A stretch of 14,014 nucleotides of DNA from Streptosporangiaceae bacterium (GTDB lineage: Bacteria; Actinomycetota; Actinomycetes; Streptosporangiales; Streptosporangiaceae): assembly GCA_025934635.1 (NCBI GenBank), contig JAICWX010000229.1, positions 1-14,014 on the forward strand, read 5' to 3'. The translations under genes and the position numbers were made by a program. The first letter of the stretch is position 1. Every line of letters begins with the position of its first letter. Below are positions 4,107-13,982 of this stretch, piece by piece. The notes beneath the pieces are model-generated. The model was not told the origin of the DNA, did no database searches, and saw only the letters and a program-made list of their open reading frames with translations.

Positions 4107-4125
4107 TTAGGTTAGGCAAACCTTA
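4107..4125 (+). promoter_or_regulatory. Iron box (DtxR/IdeR/DmdR-type operator)
   Basis: TTAGGTTAGGCAAACCTTA matches the actinobacterial iron-box consensus TTAGGTTAGGCTAACCTAA at 17 of 19 positions. A possible -10 element TAATAC lies at 4131-4136, and the left end of the box (TTAGGT) falls 18 bases before it, so the operator would cover the -35 region. That geometry fits iron-dependent repression of a transcript reading rightward into the sucrase/ferredoxin-like gene. The match is seen directly; the regulator and the direction of the effect are inferred from the known IdeR/DtxR family. Confidence 0.82.
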
Positions 4126-4431
4126 GCTAGTAATACTTTGTTAAGCATTCGCCGTCAAGAGGGCGAGATCACGTGGTCACGGTGCGCGACGTTACAGGTC
4201 CGCCCGGCGGCCCGCCGGCCGCCCGGGGGCCCGAAGGCGCAGTTCGCGGGCCTGATGGCAGGTTATGGCGGAAACCGGGCGATTACCGATCGCTTACCTC
4301 GTGAGGTCGACCGACCCGCGGGGGCCGCCCGGGCCGTCAATGTGTTCAAAGCCGAAATCACTCCGTGTCCCAGTCGAGACCGTTCCGCGCGGCCGCGGCG
4401 AAGACCTCACCCAGGCACGACAGGGATGGCC

Positions 4432-5547
4432 ATGTCGCTCGACACCTGCTCGCCCAGCCTCAATCGGCCCAGCCTCAATCGGACCAGCCCCAATCGGACC
4501 AGCCCCAATCGGACCAGCCTCACCCGGACCGGCCTCCGGCCGGGCGCCGGGCCCGGGCTGCCCGTGAAGTGCTGTGCCGACGCCACGCTGCTGCGCGGCG
4601 AGCCCATCGCCGCCAGCGCGCTGTACTGCCGCCGGTTCCTCCTGCTCGAAATGCCCGGGCCGTGGGGAAGATCCGGCCTGGACGAGAGCCAGCTGGAGCC
4701 CGGCGTCGCGGGGGCGCTGGGGGACGCGGCCGACGCGAACGACGTGCGCGTGGTGCTGATCCGCCGGCCGGGCCGCCACCCCGGCGCGGGTCACCAGCCA
4801 GGGAACCTGGCCTGGGCCATCGCCGACACCTCGCCGGGCGCCGAGCGCATCGTGTGGGGTGCCTGGCGGCGTCCGGCCGACCTGCTCGACCTGGACCTGA
4901 CCGCCATCCCCGCACCGGCGGACGCCACCGGGCCGCAGCGGGTCGCCCTGGTGTGCACCAACGGCAAGCGCGACCTGTGCTGCGCGGTCCGCGGCCGTCC
5001 GGTGGCGGCGGCGATCGCGGATGCCACTGGCTGGGACACCTGGGAGTCCTCCCACCTGGGCGGCCATCGCTTCGCGGCGACGGCACTGCTGCTGCCCAGC
5101 GGGGAGATGTTCGGCCAGCTCGACCCGGAATCCGCGGTCGAGGTGCTCAGGCAGTTCGACGCGGGCCGGATCGTGCCGTCGCACTACCGCGGCCAGTGCG
5201 CGCAGCCGGTCGCGGCGCAGGCCGCCCTGCACGTCACGGCGGTCCGGCTCGGCGACTTCCGCCGCGGCGCCATCGAGGTCGCTTCGCTGCGTCCCGGCCT
5301 GGCCGGGGCCGGAACGGGCTGGCCGGAGCCAGCCGCGGCGACCGCGGCCTGGACGGCTACCGGACGGGTGGCCGCGGACCGCTGGGAGGTCGAGGTCATC
5401 CACCGGGCCGGCGACGGCGAGCCCGCGGCGGCGTACCGGGTGACCCTGACCGGGAGCCGGTTCGCGCCGGCCCTGCTGTCCTGCGGCGACACCGAGCCGA
5501 AGGCCGAGGTCCGGTACGAGGCGATCGGCTTCACCCGGGTCGGGTAA
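4432..5547 (+). CDS. Sucrase/ferredoxin-like (Apd1-type) thioredoxin-like [2Fe-2S] protein
   Basis: This soluble protein of about 371 residues belongs to the Suc_Fer-like family (thioredoxin-like ferredoxin fold). From residue 45 it follows the family pattern: 'CCADATLLRGEPI', then 'CRRFLLLEMPGPWG', then the cluster region with Cys175 and Cys184 (a Cx8C pair in VCTNGKRDLCC) and His208/His212 in 'SSHLGGHRF'. In yeast Apd1 a Cx8C pair and an HxxxH pair ligate a bis-histidinyl [2Fe-2S] cluster, so a redox role is likely; a substrate cannot be named. The start is uncertain: ATG 4432 has AGGG 6 bases upstream, ATG 4426 is a close alternative, and GTG 4564 would begin right at the conserved domain and drop the repeat segment. 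The iron box about 300 bases upstream suggests induction under iron limitation. A strong hairpin terminator follows the gene. Confidence 0.85.
   Translation: MSLDTCSPSLNRPSLNRTSPNRTSPNRTSLTRTGLRPGAGPGLPVKCCADATLLRGEPIAASALYCRRFLLLEMPGPWGRSGLDESQLEPGVAGALGDAADANDVRVVLIRRPGRHPGAGHQPGNLAWAIADTSPGAERIVWGAWRRPADLLDLDLTAIPAPADATGPQRVALVCTNGKRDLCCAVRGRPVAAAIADATGWDTWESSHLGGHRFAATALLLPSGEMFGQLDPESAVEVLRQFDAGRIVPSHYRGQCAQPVAAQAALHVTAVRLGDFRRGAIEVASLRPGLAGAGTGWPEPAAATAAWTATGRVAADRWEVEVIHRAGDGEPAAAYRVTLTGSRFAPALLSCGDTEPKAEVRYEAIGFTRVG
4456..4530 (+). repeat. Five tandem 15-bp repeats at the 5' end of the Suc_Fer-like gene
   Basis: Five consecutive 15-base units of the form AGCC(T/C)CAATCGGACC run at 4456, 4471, 4486, 4501 and 4516; units three and four are identical and unit five is diverged (CACCC for CAATC). 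In the Suc_Fer frame they encode SLNRP, SLNRT, SPNRT, SPNRT and SLTRT. The unit length is a multiple of three, so copy-number change would keep the frame. If translation starts at 4564 the array lies in the leader instead. Confidence 0.85.
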
Positions 5548-5709: not shown

Positions 5710-5728
5710 TTAGGCTTGGCTTACCTAC
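5710..5728 (+). promoter_or_regulatory. Second iron-box-like site
   Basis: TTAGGCTTGGCTTACCTAC matches the iron-box consensus TTAGGTTAGGCTAACCTAA at 15 of 19 positions, keeping TTAGG and ACCTA at the two ends. It lies about 375 bases before the HDO start, far for a simple repressor site, and no convincing -10 sits at the right distance. It might control a long-leader transcript, act as a distant activating site as described for IdeR at storage genes, or be weak or non-functional. Confidence 0.5.
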
Positions 5729-5793
5729 GAGCCCTCGGAACTGCTTACCAAATTATTACCGCCCGCGTAATTACTGGCCGGGTGATAACATTC

Positions 5794-5967
5794 ATGATAA
5801 GCAGATTAAAGGCCGTGACGAACGATGACATTTTTGTAAAGAGCCAACTTCCCGGATTTCCTGTGGATAGCCATTGCGTGATTGTAAGATCATTACAGAT
5901 GGCTTCGGTAAGTTCACGAGAGGCAAATGGCTATGCATTCGAGTCATTGCTGCACGGGCCGGGGTAA
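5794..5967 (+). CDS. Doubtful 57-residue small protein
   Basis: An ATG at 5794 with GGGTGA 8 bases upstream opens 58 codons ending in TAA. The product (MISRLKAVTNDD...) resembles nothing I recognise and its codon use is unlike the GC-rich genes around it. The frame also stays open upstream to the iron-box-like site. It could be a small leader gene in a long transcript, or chance in an AT-richer stretch, where open frames are rarer in this genome. Confidence 0.15.
   Translation: MISRLKAVTNDDIFVKSQLPGFPVDSHCVIVRSLQMASVSSREANGYAFESLLHGPG
5883..5897. promoter_or_regulatory. Inverted repeat TGTAA-N5-TTACA
   Basis: TGTAA (5883-5887) and TTACA (5893-5897) form a perfect dyad around GATCA in the AT-rich part of the intergenic region, about 210 bases before the HDO gene. 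The size and spacing suit a dimeric helix-turn-helix regulator. The binding protein is unknown. Confidence 0.3.
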
Positions 5968-6104
5968 CCGGAGTAGCCTGACCGCGGCGAGCGAGTCACC
6001 GTTTCCGCCCGGCCCGCCCGGCCTCTCCAGCGTGACACCACGCGGCGCCCGGTACTGACATAGTGCTGCGATCGAATATGCCGTGCACGGTGAAGGAGAC
6101 GGGT

Positions 6105-6809
6105 ATGACGCTGCTCGACAGCCGGGTCGTTTCTGAAAGCCTCGAGTCTTACGCGGGTAGCCTGCTCGCCGAGAGCACCTTCTTCTCCGGCCTCGCCGCC
6201 GGGGAGGTCCACCCGGCGCATGTCCGCGACGTCTTCGGTCAGTACTACCTGTGGCGCAACCGGTTCCACCGCTGGTTCGGGATGTGCGTCGCGAAGAGCG
6301 CGCCGGTCGACGAGACCCGGGACATCCCCCGCGTCCTGGGCGATCTCCTGACCTGCCTGCGGCACGCGATCGAGGTCGATCACCACCGGCTGACCTGGTC
6401 GTTCCTGGTCTCGCTGGGCATCGACGACCCGTCCCGGATCAAGGCCCTGCCGGTGACCGACTGCTACGCCGAGTCGTTCCTGTGCTGCTATGCCCCCGGC
6501 GACCGCAGCGGTGACGAGGCCCTCGCCGCCCTGGCCGGCCGGGGCCTGGCCGGCCCCAGCCGGGACGCGATCATCGCCAGCGCGCTGCCCCGGCATTACG
6601 GCGTGACTTCCGGACTCGAATACCTCAGCCAGCAAGATGATCTCGAGGCCGAGCACTGCCGGGCCATGTGGCGCGCGCTTGTCCGGGATCGCGCAACGGG
6701 CAGCGGGCACCTCATCGAGGCCGCCCGGCTCGAAATCTGGGAACATATCGCCTTCTGGGACGACGTGTATTACGCCCTTCTCGGAACGGAGAACGAGCTT
6801 GCCTCGTAA
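6105..6809 (+). CDS. Heme-oxygenase-fold (HDO / iron-containing redox enzyme-like) protein
   Basis: This soluble, helical protein of 234 residues resembles the Haem_oxygenas_2 / 'iron-containing redox enzyme' group. The best match is the C-terminal pattern 'RHYGVTSGLEYLSQQDDLEAEH' against a family pattern remembered as roughly 'rhYGls.e.leff..H...D..H', with 'IEVDHHRLTWSFLVSLG' matching the 'E....H...f...lG' helix. ATG 6105 is chosen because AAGGAG (6093-6098) precedes it by 6 bases; the frame runs back to 6063 without a better site. In canonical HDO enzymes an HxxxDxxH motif binds iron; here it reads Gln177-xxx-Glu181-xx-His184, and the central-helix Glu seems replaced (AGRGLAGPS). It may bind metal or heme differently, or have a non-catalytic role. 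The iron transporter gene follows 44 bases later, implying one operon. Fold assignment is fairly sure; activity is unknown. Confidence 0.8.
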   Translation: MTLLDSRVVSESLESYAGSLLAESTFFSGLAAGEVHPAHVRDVFGQYYLWRNRFHRWFGMCVAKSAPVDETRDIPRVLGDLLTCLRHAIEVDHHRLTWSFLVSLGIDDPSRIKALPVTDCYAESFLCCYAPGDRSGDEALAALAGRGLAGPSRDAIIASALPRHYGVTSGLEYLSQQDDLEAEHCRAMWRALVRDRATGSGHLIEAARLEIWEHIAFWDDVYYALLGTENELAS

Positions 6810-6853
6810 TACCCCGGCTGACATTCCGCGCCAGCGAAGACGAGGTAAGTGAC

Positions 6854-8470
6854 ATGGACGACGACTTCGATTACCGGCCGGGCGACCAGCGCCCGCGCGC
6901 CGGGACCCGCGCCCCGAGCTATCCGTACGGCGGGCCGCCCCGGACGGGGACCACCGGTCCCCAGCCCCGGCTCAACGGCACCGGACCGCTGCCGCGCATC
7001 GACGGCACCGGACCGCTGCCCCGCGTCAACGGCACCGGACCGCTGCCCCGCGTCAACGGCACCGGACCGCTGCCCCGCGTCAACGGCACGGGGCCCCAGC
7101 CCCGGCTCAACGGCCAGGCCAGCGGCACGCACGCCCGGGTCAACGGGAACGGCCAGGCGTCCACCCGCTATCAGCCGGCCAGCGGCCAGACGGGCGGGTA
7201 TCCGCTGATGAGCGGCCCGGGGATCCCCGGCTACCCGGCGGCCGGCAGCCAGGCCAAGGCGCGCCCGGGCGAGGCCAGGCCGCCCGCTCCCTGGCATCCC
7301 CCGGCGAACGGCCGCGGCAATCCCGGGTACCCTCCCGCCGGCGGACGGGGCTACCCGGAGGCAGACGGCCGGGACTATCGCGGCTACCCGCAGGCGGACG
7401 GACGAGGTTATCCGGGATACCAGCAGGCAGGCGGGCGGACCTACCCCGGGTACCCCGCGGCGGACGGCCGGGGCCAGCACGAATACGCGGAGGCAGACGG
7501 CCGGGGCCACGGATACTCCGAGGCGGACGGCCAGGGGTACCTGGAGGCCATGCTCGGCTACGACCAGGAGTACCCCGAGTCGGTGCCCGGTTACGACCAG
7601 GACTATCCCGAGTCGATGCTCGGCTATGAGCGGGACTATTCCCGGCCCGTGCTCGGCTATGAGCAGGACCATTCCCGGCCCCGGCCGGCCGGCCGCCGGG
7701 GTGCGCCGGCCGGTCCGCCGGGCGGCAAGCGCGTCCTGGGACGGCTGGTGCTCCTGCCGAAGGCCCTGCCGCTGCCGGGCCAGGCCCTGCGCGAGCACCG
7801 GGACGTATCCGGCGGCTGGCTGCGGCCGGCCGTGTTCGGCGCGATGGACGGCCTGGTCACCAACTCATCCCTGATCGCCGGCGTCGGCGGGGGCGGCGGT
7901 GCTCGCGCCGCGATCGTGCTGACCGGCATCGCCGGCCTGATCGCCGGCGCGTTCTCCATGGCGACCGGGGAGTACATCTCGGTGACCTCCCAGAACGAGC
8001 TGACCGCGGCGGAAGTGGAACTCGAGCGGCTGCAGCACCGCCACGACCGCGCCGCGAAGCTGGGCCGGCTGACCGAGATCTACATGGACAAGGGGGTCTC
8101 CCCCAACCTGGCCGAGGCGGTCGCCCGGCAGATCTCGGCCGACGAGGACCGGGCGGTCGCCACCCACGTGCGCGAGGAACTGGGGATCGACCCGGATGAC
8201 CTGCCGTCACCGCGGACCGCGGCGGCGGCGTCGTTCGCCGCCTTCACCGTGGGCGCGCTGCTCCCGCTCAGCCCGTTCCTGCTCGGGATCGCCAACCTCA
8301 AGCTGGCGCTGATGATAGCCGGCATCGCCGCCCTGGTCGGCGGGGCCGCGGTGGCGAAGCTGACCGACCGGTCGATGCTGCTCGGGGGGCTGCGCCAGTT
8401 CATCGCGGCCTTCCTGGCCACGGGCATGGCCTTCGCCGTCGGGCACCTGATCGGCGGCCACATCAGCTGA
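6854..8470 (+). CDS. VIT/CCC1-family iron (Fe/Mn) transporter with a long repetitive N-terminal extension
   Basis: This 538-residue protein is an integral membrane iron transporter of the VIT/DUF125 family, which moves Fe2+ or Mn2+ out of the cytosol. Residues 1 to about 310 are low-complexity and probably disordered: a 9-residue repeat (GTGPLPRVN), a Gly/Tyr/Pro-rich segment (GYP-ADGRG) and four 11-residue acidic Tyr repeats (LGYDQ-YPES). The VIT domain starts near residue 313 with 'EHRDVSGGWLRPAVFGAMDGLVTN' (Asp332), then 'SMATGEY' (Met369, Glu373), a helical cytosolic segment, 'EELGIDPDDLPSPRTAA' and three C-terminal helices. Typical members have about 230 residues, so the N-terminal half is extra. 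ATG 6854 has GAGGT 7 bases before it; the frame is open further upstream only as a shadow of the HDO gene. The stop overlaps tail-to-tail with the OmpR-type regulator. Confidence 0.9.
   Translation: MDDDFDYRPGDQRPRAGTRAPSYPYGGPPRTGTTGPQPRLNGTGPLPRIDGTGPLPRVNGTGPLPRVNGTGPLPRVNGTGPQPRLNGQASGTHARVNGNGQASTRYQPASGQTGGYPLMSGPGIPGYPAAGSQAKARPGEARPPAPWHPPANGRGNPGYPPAGGRGYPEADGRDYRGYPQADGRGYPGYQQAGGRTYPGYPAADGRGQHEYAEADGRGHGYSEADGQGYLEAMLGYDQEYPESVPGYDQDYPESMLGYERDYSRPVLGYEQDHSRPRPAGRRGAPAGPPGGKRVLGRLVLLPKALPLPGQALREHRDVSGGWLRPAVFGAMDGLVTNSSLIAGVGGGGGARAAIVLTGIAGLIAGAFSMATGEYISVTSQNELTAAEVELERLQHRHDRAAKLGRLTEIYMDKGVSPNLAEAVARQISADEDRAVATHVREELGIDPDDLPSPRTAAAASFAAFTVGALLPLSPFLLGIANLKLALMIAGIAALVGGAAVAKLTDRSMLLGGLRQFIAAFLATGMAFAVGHLIGGHIS
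6950..7111 (+). repeat. Six tandem 27-bp units (GTGPLPRVN) in the transporter gene
   Basis: Units start at 6950, 6977, 7004, 7031, 7058 and 7085. The three central units encode GTGPLPRVN with essentially identical DNA; the outer two read TTGPQPRLN and GTGPQPRLN, and the second reads GTGPLPRID. This recent, nearly perfect duplication keeps the frame and is likely to vary in copy number between strains. Confidence 0.9.
7310..7549 (+). repeat. Degenerate Gly/Tyr/Pro repeat (GYPxADGRG) in the transporter gene
   Basis: The segment encodes about eight imperfect copies of a GYPxADGRGY-like unit, for example GYPPAGGRG, YPEADGRD, GYPQADGRG, GYPAADGRG and YAEADGRG. Tyr and Gly dominate, with scattered Asp, Glu and Arg. 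Such sequence is typical of disordered, possibly self-associating tails. The DNA repeats have diverged more than the 27-bp array. Confidence 0.8.
7550..7681 (+). repeat. Four tandem 33-bp units of an acidic Tyr-rich 11-mer
   Basis: Units at 7550, 7583, 7616 and 7649 encode MLGYDQEYPES, VPGYDQDYPES, MLGYERDYSRP and VLGYEQDHSRP. Each has one or two Tyr and two or three acidic residues, which could bind metal weakly or interact with a partner. The array ends just before a basic Arg/Pro-rich linker into the membrane domain. Confidence 0.85.
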
Positions 8471-9227
8471 CGGCGAGCTGGTATCCCTCGCCGCGCACGG
8501 TCTTGATGAGACGGTCGCCGATCTTGGCCCGCAGGCGGCGCACGCATACGCCCACGATGTTGGAACCGGGGTCGAAGGCGTACCCCCAGACCGACTCGAG
8601 GAGCTGCCCCTTCGACACCGCCTGCCCGGCGTGCTCCATCAGCTCCTTGAGCACCAGGAACTCCAGCCGGGTGAGCGGCAGCGGGCCATCGCCCATGTCC
8701 GCCTCCATCCGGCCCACGTGCAGCGTGATCTCCCCGGCCCTGATGACCCGCCCGAAGCCGCCGTCACGCAGCTGGTTCCGCACCCGGGCCAGCAGCTCGT
8801 CCAGCGCGAACGGCTTGGTCAGGTAGTCCCGCGCGCCGAGATTGAAGCAGGCCACCTTGGACCGCACGTCGGCCAGGCGGGACAGCACGAGGACCGCCTG
8901 GCCCGGACGGTCGCGCAGCAGCTGCCGCAGCACGGCGAAGCCGTCGGCCCCGGGCATCACGATGTCCATGATGACCAGGTCGTAGGCCTCCTCCAGGGCC
9001 CGCTGGAGCCCGTCGCAGGCGGTCTCGGCCAGGTCGGTCAGCAGCCCTTCGGCCGCCAGGGCGCGGCTGAGGACGGACCGTATCGCCTCCTCGTCGTCGA
9101 TGACCAGGACGCGCGGCCCGCTCGGCGGACGCGGAAATACGGCTCCGTCGAATTCCTGCTGGTCGATCACGGCATGCCCATCGTCCCGGACCGGGCAGGC
9201 CTCCCGGGTCCCCGATTTTCCCGTCAT
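8463..9227 (-). CDS. OmpR/PhoB-type response regulator (orphan)
   Basis: This is a DNA-binding response regulator of about 254 residues. The receiver domain shows 'VLVIDDEEA' (Asp44, Asp45), the phosphorylated Asp88 in 'IMDIVMPGADGF' and Lys138 in 'DYLTKPF'. The C-terminal winged-helix domain (about 161-252) has 'PLTRLEFLVLKELMEHAGQAVSKGQLLESVWG' split across its first helices and the recognition helix 'NIVGVCVRRLRAKIG', ending in 'IKTVRGEGYQL'. The start is uncertain: ATG 9227 is preferred; the frame extends to 9329, and a GTG inside the Gln/Phe-rich lead could also serve, leaving a shorter N-terminus. No histidine kinase is adjacent, so its partner is elsewhere. It converges with the transporter gene, the two stops lying within 8 bases. 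Its own promoter must lie in 9228-9558. Confidence 0.92.
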   Translation of the reverse strand: MTGKSGTREACPVRDDGHAVIDQQEFDGAVFPRPPSGPRVLVIDDEEAIRSVLSRALAAEGLLTDLAETACDGLQRALEEAYDLVIMDIVMPGADGFAVLRQLLRDRPGQAVLVLSRLADVRSKVACFNLGARDYLTKPFALDELLARVRNQLRDGGFGRVIRAGEITLHVGRMEADMGDGPLPLTRLEFLVLKELMEHAGQAVSKGQLLESVWGYAFDPGSNIVGVCVRRLRAKIGDRLIKTVRGEGYQLAVS

Positions 9228-9282
9228 CCCATCCCGGCGGCGAATGGCCGCTCCGGACGGCATCGCGACGGCACACGATGTC

Positions 9283-9297
9283 CGTACTTCTAGTACG
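9283..9297. promoter_or_regulatory. Inverted repeat CGTAC-N5-GTACG
   Basis: CGTAC (9283-9287) and GTACG (9293-9297) are exact mirror arms around TTCTA, 56 bases upstream of the preferred regulator start. It is a candidate operator for the regulator gene; OmpR-type proteins usually bind direct repeats, so another protein may be involved. Confidence 0.4.
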
Positions 9298-9328
9298 TAT
9301 TTCGCCGCACCAGGTTCAAAGCCGAGCA

Positions 9329-9344
9329 TGACGGATTACCGTCA
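9329..9344. promoter_or_regulatory. Inverted repeat TGACGG-ATTA-CCGTCA
   Basis: Perfect 6-bp arms with a 4-base centre, in a divergent intergenic region. It can be an operator or a small hairpin; there is no T-run after it on either strand. It lies about 100 bases from the regulator start and 215 from the amidohydrolase start. Confidence 0.45.
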
Positions 9345-13063: not shown

Positions 13064-13930
13064 TCAGTTCGCCGGCGGATGCATCGTCAGGCACATCATC
13101 CCGGTAAAGATCTCTTCGTTGATGATGTAAATCATCCCGACCAGATACGGCACGCCGATGATCGCGACCAGCAGCCATACTTTCCATTTCTGGCCGTCCG
13201 CCCGCTTGGCGGTGACCCAGCGCTTCACCGGGGGGAGCCGGAGCAGGACGAGCGGGAGGCTAATCGCGACGGACTGGTAGAAACGCTGGTGGAAAACGGG
13301 GTCGCCATCTCCCTCGGGCGGGGCGAAGGTCTTGAATCCGTCGAGCAGCAGCAGGTGAATGACGATCAGCGCCCACAGGGCGTAGGTCACCCGCTGGATT
13401 CTCTTCCACTGTTTCCCGAGCCTGCGCTGCGCCGGGGTATTGGCGGTGGCCAGGACCGGGATAGCCAGCAGGACGATGAAGAGCCCGGTGACCAGGAAGG
13501 TGTGCCCGGCCAGGCGGCCGAAAACGCCCCCGGCGAAGTCGGTCGAGATGGCCGCGGTGGTCGCGTCCGAGATCCCGATCAGCGCGAACATGATGCCGTA
13601 CCACCGGCGGAGCGGCGCGAACCACCGTTGCCCGGTGACGGTGATAAGCGGGGTGATCGTCACGGCCAGGAAGAAGCAGATCTCACCGCCGGTCCCGAGT
13701 ATGTCGGCCTCGGTATTGGTCAGGCTGTCCTTTTCGTTCAGCGAGAACCAGCCGCGGGCGACGAAGATCCACGGGATGAACGCGGGCAGCCGGAGCAGGA
13801 ACAGTATGAGGGACTGCTTCTTGATGACCAGGGCCGAGAATATGAGATCCTCGCCCATCCAGGTATCTACAGTCCGGGCTTTCGCGGGCGGTTCTGGTCG
13901 ACGGCCGGCAGCTACTTCCGTATTAGCCAT
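13064..13930 (-). CDS. Multi-pass membrane protein resembling the ferric-reductase/MsrQ fold
   Basis: This 288-residue protein has about seven hydrophobic helices after a 25-residue polar N-terminus. The stretch at residues 104-197, with 'PLRRWYG', 'AGHTFLVTGLFIVLLAIPVLAT' and 'RRLGKQWKRIQRVTYALWALIVIHLLLLD' read in pieces, follows the ferric-reductase-like (MsrQ/YedZ) pattern in which His residues hold heme b. His143 and His192 are present, but the His of 'LHRLVY' is Gln179 here, and the first-helix His appears as 'GISDA'. It may bind heme differently or be a divergent member. It lacks FAD/NAD domains. ATG 13930 is preferred, with AAGGAG ten bases upstream; the frame extends to 13972. It is preceded by a short divergent region with a tandem repeat at the window edge. 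Confidence 0.65.
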   Translation of the reverse strand: MANTEVAAGRRPEPPAKARTVDTWMGEDLIFSALVIKKQSLILFLLRLPAFIPWIFVARGWFSLNEKDSLTNTEADILGTGGEICFFLAVTITPLITVTGQRWFAPLRRWYGIMFALIGISDATTAAISTDFAGGVFGRLAGHTFLVTGLFIVLLAIPVLATANTPAQRRLGKQWKRIQRVTYALWALIVIHLLLLDGFKTFAPPEGDGDPVFHQRFYQSVAISLPLVLLRLPPVKRWVTAKRADGQKWKVWLLVAIIGVPYLVGMIYIINEEIFTGMMCLTMHPPAN

Positions 13931-13982
13931 CTGTAGCTCTCTCCTTGCATGGGGATATAACGCCGCTCCCACGGAGTCATTC

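What the first reader, a model, noticed from the sequence alone, without database searches (positions are those of the whole stretch)
5710..8470. Candidate iron release/export module: HDO-fold protein paired with a VIT iron transporter under an iron-box-like site
A heme-oxygenase-fold gene and a VIT/CCC1 transporter gene are 44 bases apart, co-directional, with an iron-box-like sequence in the region upstream. The known MbfA proteins fuse a ferritin-like domain to VIT; here a separate HDO-fold protein takes the place next to the transporter. One model is that the HDO protein binds or liberates iron or heme and the transporter removes it. I know of no described system of this make-up.
Basis: partly seen in the sequence, partly recalled or inferred. 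Interest (0 to 1): 0.75.

Follow-up and report, generated by a model that had tools for sequence, protein, structure and literature searches.

The report
Iron-exporter gene paired with decayed oxygenase
In what is probably an uncultured soil actinomycete, an iron-exporter gene sits in one likely operon, behind an iron-sensor binding site, with a protein that looks like an iron-dependent oxygenase but lacks half of the predicted iron-binding residues, so it probably helps or controls the exporter rather than acting as an enzyme.

The parts
5710..5728 (+). IdeR/DtxR-type iron box, 15 of 19 matches
   Evidence: consensus from a passage of PMC8464063
5700..6104 (+). leader between iron box and HDO start, collinear with the leader of the VIT gene of G840 (ACGATGAYATTTTTGTAA and other blocks)
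   Evidence: the local alignment score alone does not exceed shuffles
6105..6809 (+). HDO-fold (PF14518-like, CADD-like) protein, 234 aa
6366..6368 (+). codon 88, Ala where 173 of 177 rows aligned have Glu (predicted alpha1 ligand, first iron site)
6381..6383 (+). codon 93, His retained (predicted alpha1 ligand)
6543..6545 (+). codon 147, Gly where Glu is the predicted alpha2 (bridging) ligand
6633..6635 (+). codon 177, Gln where His is the predicted first alpha3 ligand
6645..6656 (+). codons 181-184; E181 and H184 retained (predicted second iron site)
6854..8470 (+). VIT/CCC1-family transporter, 538 aa
6854..7789 (+). low-complexity Gly/Pro-rich N-terminal extension of the VIT (about 312 residues, tandem repeats of 27 and 33 bases), of variable length in relatives
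7820..8446 (+). PF01988 VIT domain

Best explanation
This is an iron-regulated operon for metal export. Under iron excess an IdeR/DmdR1-type regulator acting at the box at 5710 raises transcription of the HDO-VIT pair (inferred from published relatives), and the VIT protein moves Fe2+ (or Mn2+) out of the cytoplasm (inferred from family). The HDO protein came from a diiron oxygenase lineage and lies between the box and the transporter. In the window's branch the first iron site has been dismantled while most of the protein stayed conserved, so it most likely works without a diiron cofactor, as a non-catalytic partner of the transporter (docking, gating, or binding a small ligand in the old active-site pocket).
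For: Adjacent co-directional genes with no terminator between. Iron box beyond chance, and the VIT of G840 (82% identical) has a box with 2 mismatches and a collinear leader. Iron- and DtxR-induced VIT1 (DIP0116) in C. diphtheriae and a DmdR1 box at S. coelicolor vtlA are published (passages). Pair seen elsewhere by shared contig lengths. Ligand loss: window A-H-G-Q-E-H against E-H-E-H-E-H in 146 of the 176 homologs aligned. The 24-row clade with the window keeps E88 in 21, H93 18, E147 8, H177 3, E181 24, H184 23 of 24, but 75 other conserved sites at 91% on average. In a tree of all 177 rows without the six ligand columns the same 24 rows are one clade (SH-aLRT 99) that holds no row with the full motif. 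The tied best fold match PqqC is a metal-independent member of the fold (PMC13108848).
Against: No expression or binding data. The box is one site with 4 mismatches, far from the start codon. The partner role is inferred from what is lost. E90, two residues from A88, might take over as ligand, and H93, E181 and H184 could still hold one metal. Ten of the 75 other conserved sites are also kept in 70% or fewer of the clade, so the change is not confined to ligands. G840 has this VIT without HDO. HDO and VIT distances across the six putative pairs agree only weakly (r 0.39, 52 of 720 permutations as high). Homologs are those listed (120 of 269 and 120 of 234).
Confidence: 0.45

Rival explanations
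1. MbfA-like division of labour: the HDO protein oxidises or hands over Fe2+ to the VIT channel, as the ferritin-like domain of MbfA does, using a labile diiron site.
For: Three members with a putative VIT partner keep all six ligands (P0046, P0055, P0104). MbfA's ferritin-like domain has ferroxidase activity and is needed for transport (PMC7762939, passage). HDO diiron clusters are described as labile (PMC13108848).
Against: The window protein lacks three ligands; of the other members with a putative partner, P0026 lacks one and P0051 three (EHADEY). The three intact cases rest on the weaker contig-length matches. None of the passages read mentions an HDO acting as a ferroxidase.
Confidence: 0.2
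2. Mononuclear iron enzyme: H93, E181 and H184 form a single two-histidine one-carboxylate site and the protein oxidises a small molecule.
For: FlcD is an HDO with one iron (PMC11363339). E181 is kept in 24 of 24 and H184 in 23 of 24 clade rows.
Against: FlcD keeps the first-site ligands (alpha1 E and H, first alpha3 H), the set from which this clade lost residues. H93 is itself lost in 6 of 24 rows.
Confidence: 0.15
3. Passenger: a former biosynthetic HDO gene that landed before the VIT and is decaying without function.
For: Distant relatives sit by other genes: an NRPS-like gene (by eye) and an MFS transporter in L001, sugar, carrier-protein and aminotransferase genes in L059. Ligands are lost in several different ways.
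Against: Open frame with coding-type third-position GC; 75 other conserved sites 91% kept, mean pairwise identity 73% in the clade against 78% in a sister sample of 17.
Confidence: 0.2

Closest known systems
HDO superfamily, CADD/PabS and BesC branches (PF14518)
   Different: Window protein has 3 of 6 ligands replaced; CADD's Tyr27 aligns to F27 and Lys152 to an Ile, so it is no p-aminobenzoate synthase of that kind; it is linked to a transporter and an iron box
PqqC / TenA (metal-independent members of the fold)
   Different: By sequence profile the solved relatives found are PabS, BesC and CADD, not PqqC
MbfA (membrane-bound ferritin)
   Same: A helical protein of formally diiron type linked with a VIT-type membrane domain and iron-dependent control
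   Different: Fused ferritin-like domain in MbfA under Irr control; separate HDO-fold protein here, ligands degraded, IdeR-type site
Iron-box VIT genes of actinobacteria (C. diphtheriae DIP0116, S. coelicolor vtlA)
   Same: VIT gene under DtxR control or with a DmdR1 box
   Different: No HDO partner is mentioned in the passages read
FlcD
   Same: An HDO that departs from the diiron motif
   Different: FlcD keeps the first iron site and lost two alpha3 ligands of the second; here the first site is damaged

Membership tests
HDO (heme-oxygenase-like dimetal oxidase) | Heme-oxygenase-like helical fold | tested here: met
HDO (heme-oxygenase-like dimetal oxidase) | Six-residue metal motif E-H-X-H-D/E-H (PMC11363339); Glu also at the third place in this family | tested here: not met
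   Window A88-H93-G147-Q177-E181-H184. Position 88 rests on conservation and the BesC alignment; the CADD alignment would favour 86, which is Arg in the window
HDO (heme-oxygenase-like dimetal oxidase) | Binds dinuclear metal and activates O2 | not testable with these tools
   needs purified protein
Canonical heme oxygenase | Proximal histidine in the first helix | tested here: not met
   No His in window residues 6-32; the role of this His is recalled. HmuO chains do appear among the fold matches, lower down
VIT/CCC1 transporter | PF01988 domain above cutoff | tested here: met
   189.6 bits against 28.1
VIT/CCC1 transporter | Pathway Asp and Met of plant VIT1 (D43, M80; numbering recalled) | tested here: met
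   D332 and M369, in 121 of 121 rows aligned
VIT/CCC1 transporter | Seven cytosolic metal-binding residues of plant VIT1 (recalled) | tested here: not met
   2 of 7 identical (E391, E442); the other five differ in the same way in at least 118 of 121 rows
MbfA | Ferritin-like domain fused to VIT | tested here: not met
   Only PF01988 found in the VIT protein; N-terminal part is low complexity
IdeR/DtxR regulon | Iron box in the upstream region | tested here: met
   4 mismatches, 11 of 20000 by chance
IdeR/DtxR regulon | Regulator binding and iron response | not testable with these tools
   needs EMSA or expression data

The most novel reading that the evidence does not exclude
The heme-oxygenase-like oxygenase fold has been taken over for iron homeostasis: a 'pseudo-HDO' without a diiron site serves as a regulatory or docking subunit of a VIT iron exporter, switched on with it by the iron sensor. 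Intact members elsewhere in the lineage would preserve the enzyme-like stage.
Probability: 0.33. Interest if true: 0.72.

Novelty: new variant of a known kind. Interest (0 to 1): 0.5.

Why it matters
The review read (PMC13108848, section 4) links the few characterised HDOs predominantly to transformations of fatty and amino acids in biosynthesis; a branch tied to an iron exporter would be a new role. Intact and degraded metal sites stand side by side in one lineage, so how an oxygenase turns into a non-enzyme can be followed and tested. It would also be an unfused counterpart of the MbfA arrangement in Actinomycetota.

Tried and rejected
Heme oxygenase reading: no histidine at 6-32. p-Aminobenzoate synthase: Tyr27 and Lys152 equivalents absent. 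Defence system: no PADLOC hit at E 0.01. RNA element in the leader: no Rfam hit at gathering scores, fold z -1.24. Plasmid records: one distant match, a Nostoc protein at 29%. The first AF2 model (32 close rows) was poor, pLDDT 40.5, and not used. The scan of viral contigs gave no relative. Contig-length matches 1417 and 1466 were dropped because both genes do not fit; 3904 (P0289 with P0128) was dropped because the HDO is 60% and the VIT 94% identical, which looks like chance. An iron box (up to 4 mismatches) within 1 kb upstream of the VIT domain was found only for G840 among 60 loci scanned, which include duplicates; this scan would miss boxes lying further off, the window's own included.

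Papers: abstract and sections 4, 5, 11 of PMC13108848; section 10 and passages of PMC11363339; passages only of PMC11965152, PMC13001254, PMC13061897, PMC8464063, PMC7762939; everything else as search listings. That no HDO-VIT pair was found in print rests, in an open-access library only. Recalled, from no call: CADD ligand numbering (one search found none of it in the paper), plant VIT1 residue numbers, the heme-oxygenase proximal histidine.

Seven rows outside it also depart from E-H-E-H-E-H (P0062, P0095, P0098, P0103, P0109, P0120, P0292), two of them only by D for E.

Full report

Regulation. The IdeR consensus in PMC8464063 (passage) has two good matches in the window: 4107-4125 with 2 mismatches, before a sucrase/ferredoxin-like gene, and 5710-5728 with 4 mismatches, in the region before HDO. 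The second arises in 11 of 20000 simulations of the intergenic region. In G840, whose VIT domain is 82% identical, a box with 2 mismatches lies upstream of VIT; between them I saw no ORF of 100 aa or more but one that starts past the box on the other strand, and the leaders align in the same order from box onward. The local alignment by itself scored 34 against shuffles of mean 24.7 and maximum 40, so the argument rests on the order of blocks, not on the score. [quoted passage not shown] diphtheriae, and S. coelicolor vtlA has a DmdR1 box.

How widespread is the pair? In the HDO search 269 proteins passed E 1e-3 and 120 were listed; the listed ones, at 61-99% identity, come from environmental or unnamed sources. 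In genomes they are rare. The genome-contig scan, which uses two short peptide patterns, gave four Streptomyces loci at 41-47% identity. In samples of whole genomes the HDO matched 2 of 394 (the centre genome itself and one weak partial match), 0 of 13, 1 of 293 and 2 of 293 (the same order), 2 of 249, 0 of 1 and 2 of 297; these samples overlap, and G852 is the only full-length newcomer. None of the five full-length loci read (L001-L004, L059) has a VIT in the sequence held; neighbours include an NRPS-like gene (by eye), MFS transporters, an aminotransferase, a carrier protein and sugar genes. VIT itself matches in 350 of 394 genomes. So the pair belongs to a narrow lineage. Four of the 120 listed VIT relatives bear names of Streptosporangiaceae or Trebonia MAGs, which is my guess for the window's source.

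Within that lineage I compared the longest contig of each HDO cluster (120 listed) with that of each VIT cluster (120 listed of 515, 119 with a length). Seven lengths coincide. Five are above 2500 bases (3714, 3720, 4297, 10925, 40493) against a mean of 0.47 and a maximum of 3 over 400 shifted comparisons; above 9000 there are two against 0.01. The two long ones are convincing; for the three short ones a coincidence cannot be excluded one by one. Across the six putative pairs, the window's included, HDO and VIT similarities agree weakly (r 0.39; 52 of 720 permutations as high). Same contig is not the same as adjacent, for the 40 kb case above all.

The iron site. The HDO literature places two ligands on helix alpha1, one on alpha2 and three on alpha3, with E-H-X-H-D/E-H in about 85% of groups (PMC11363339 section 10). 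By the alignments I take these to be positions 88, 93, 147, 177, 181 and 184; 147, 177, 181 and 184 are unambiguous, 88 less so. Of 176 homologs aligned (those listed), 146 read E-H-E-H-E-H; the window reads A-H-G-Q-E-H. A tree of all 177 rows without the six ligand columns has one clade of 24 rows with the window (SH-aLRT 99), and every row in it lacks H93 or H177, so none has the full motif (smaller trees agree). Retention there is E88 21, H93 18, E147 8, H177 3, E181 24 and H184 23 of 24, while 75 other sites that are at least 90% conserved outside are kept at 91% on average. Ten of those 75 are kept in 70% or fewer, so the change is not confined to ligands. Outside the clade 148 of 153 rows have all six when D is allowed at 181. 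In FlcD the single iron uses the alpha1 E and H and the first alpha3 H, the set from which this clade lost residues.

How it most likely works. Shown: genes, spacing, iron box, fold, ligand replacement. Inferred: co-transcription, iron induction, metal export, and the non-catalytic partner role of HDO. The pocket may still bind a ligand; among others Q46, H55, W57, C61, Y121, Y165, H214 and D219 stay invariant in the clade. A mononuclear site of H93, E181 and H184, and an MbfA-like role in the intact members, stay open.

Novelty. A VIT under an iron regulator is known, HDO enzymes are known, and departures from the HDO motif are known. A lineage that pairs HDO with VIT, with a branch that lost the first iron site, was not found in the searches made.

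Noticed in passing
window 4107-4125 and 4138-5547: A stronger iron box (2 mismatches) directly before a sucrase/ferredoxin-like gene (PF06999), so a second likely iron-regulated gene just upstream. The ORF also carries a 15-base tandem repeat at 4454-4536 near its start, so the true start may lie further in.
   Followed up: partly
window 6854-7789: The VIT's N-terminal extension is built of 27- and 33-base tandem repeats and varies in length, from about 70 to over 300 residues, among the relatives listed.
   Followed up: partly
window 8463-9329 (-): An OmpR-type response regulator gene converges on VIT and overlaps its last 8 bases, with no kinase gene directly beside it; in G840 a 72% identical regulator follows VIT on the same strand, with a histidine-kinase-like ORF (by eye) after it.
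   Followed up: partly
window 5883-5897: Perfect inverted repeat TGTAA-N5-TTACA in the HDO leader, seen by eye; not seen in the aligned G840 leader.
   Followed up: no
window 13064-13972 (-): Membrane protein with sub-threshold ferric-reductase and MsrQ-like matches.
   Followed up: no
L002 8697-10025, L003 8725-10053, L004 8698-10026: In three Streptomyces the HDO relative is followed by a conserved 442 aa ORF with no Pfam match (tested for L002), then by a long ORF (849 aa in L003 and L004, no Pfam match in L003), a possible unknown gene cluster.
   Followed up: no
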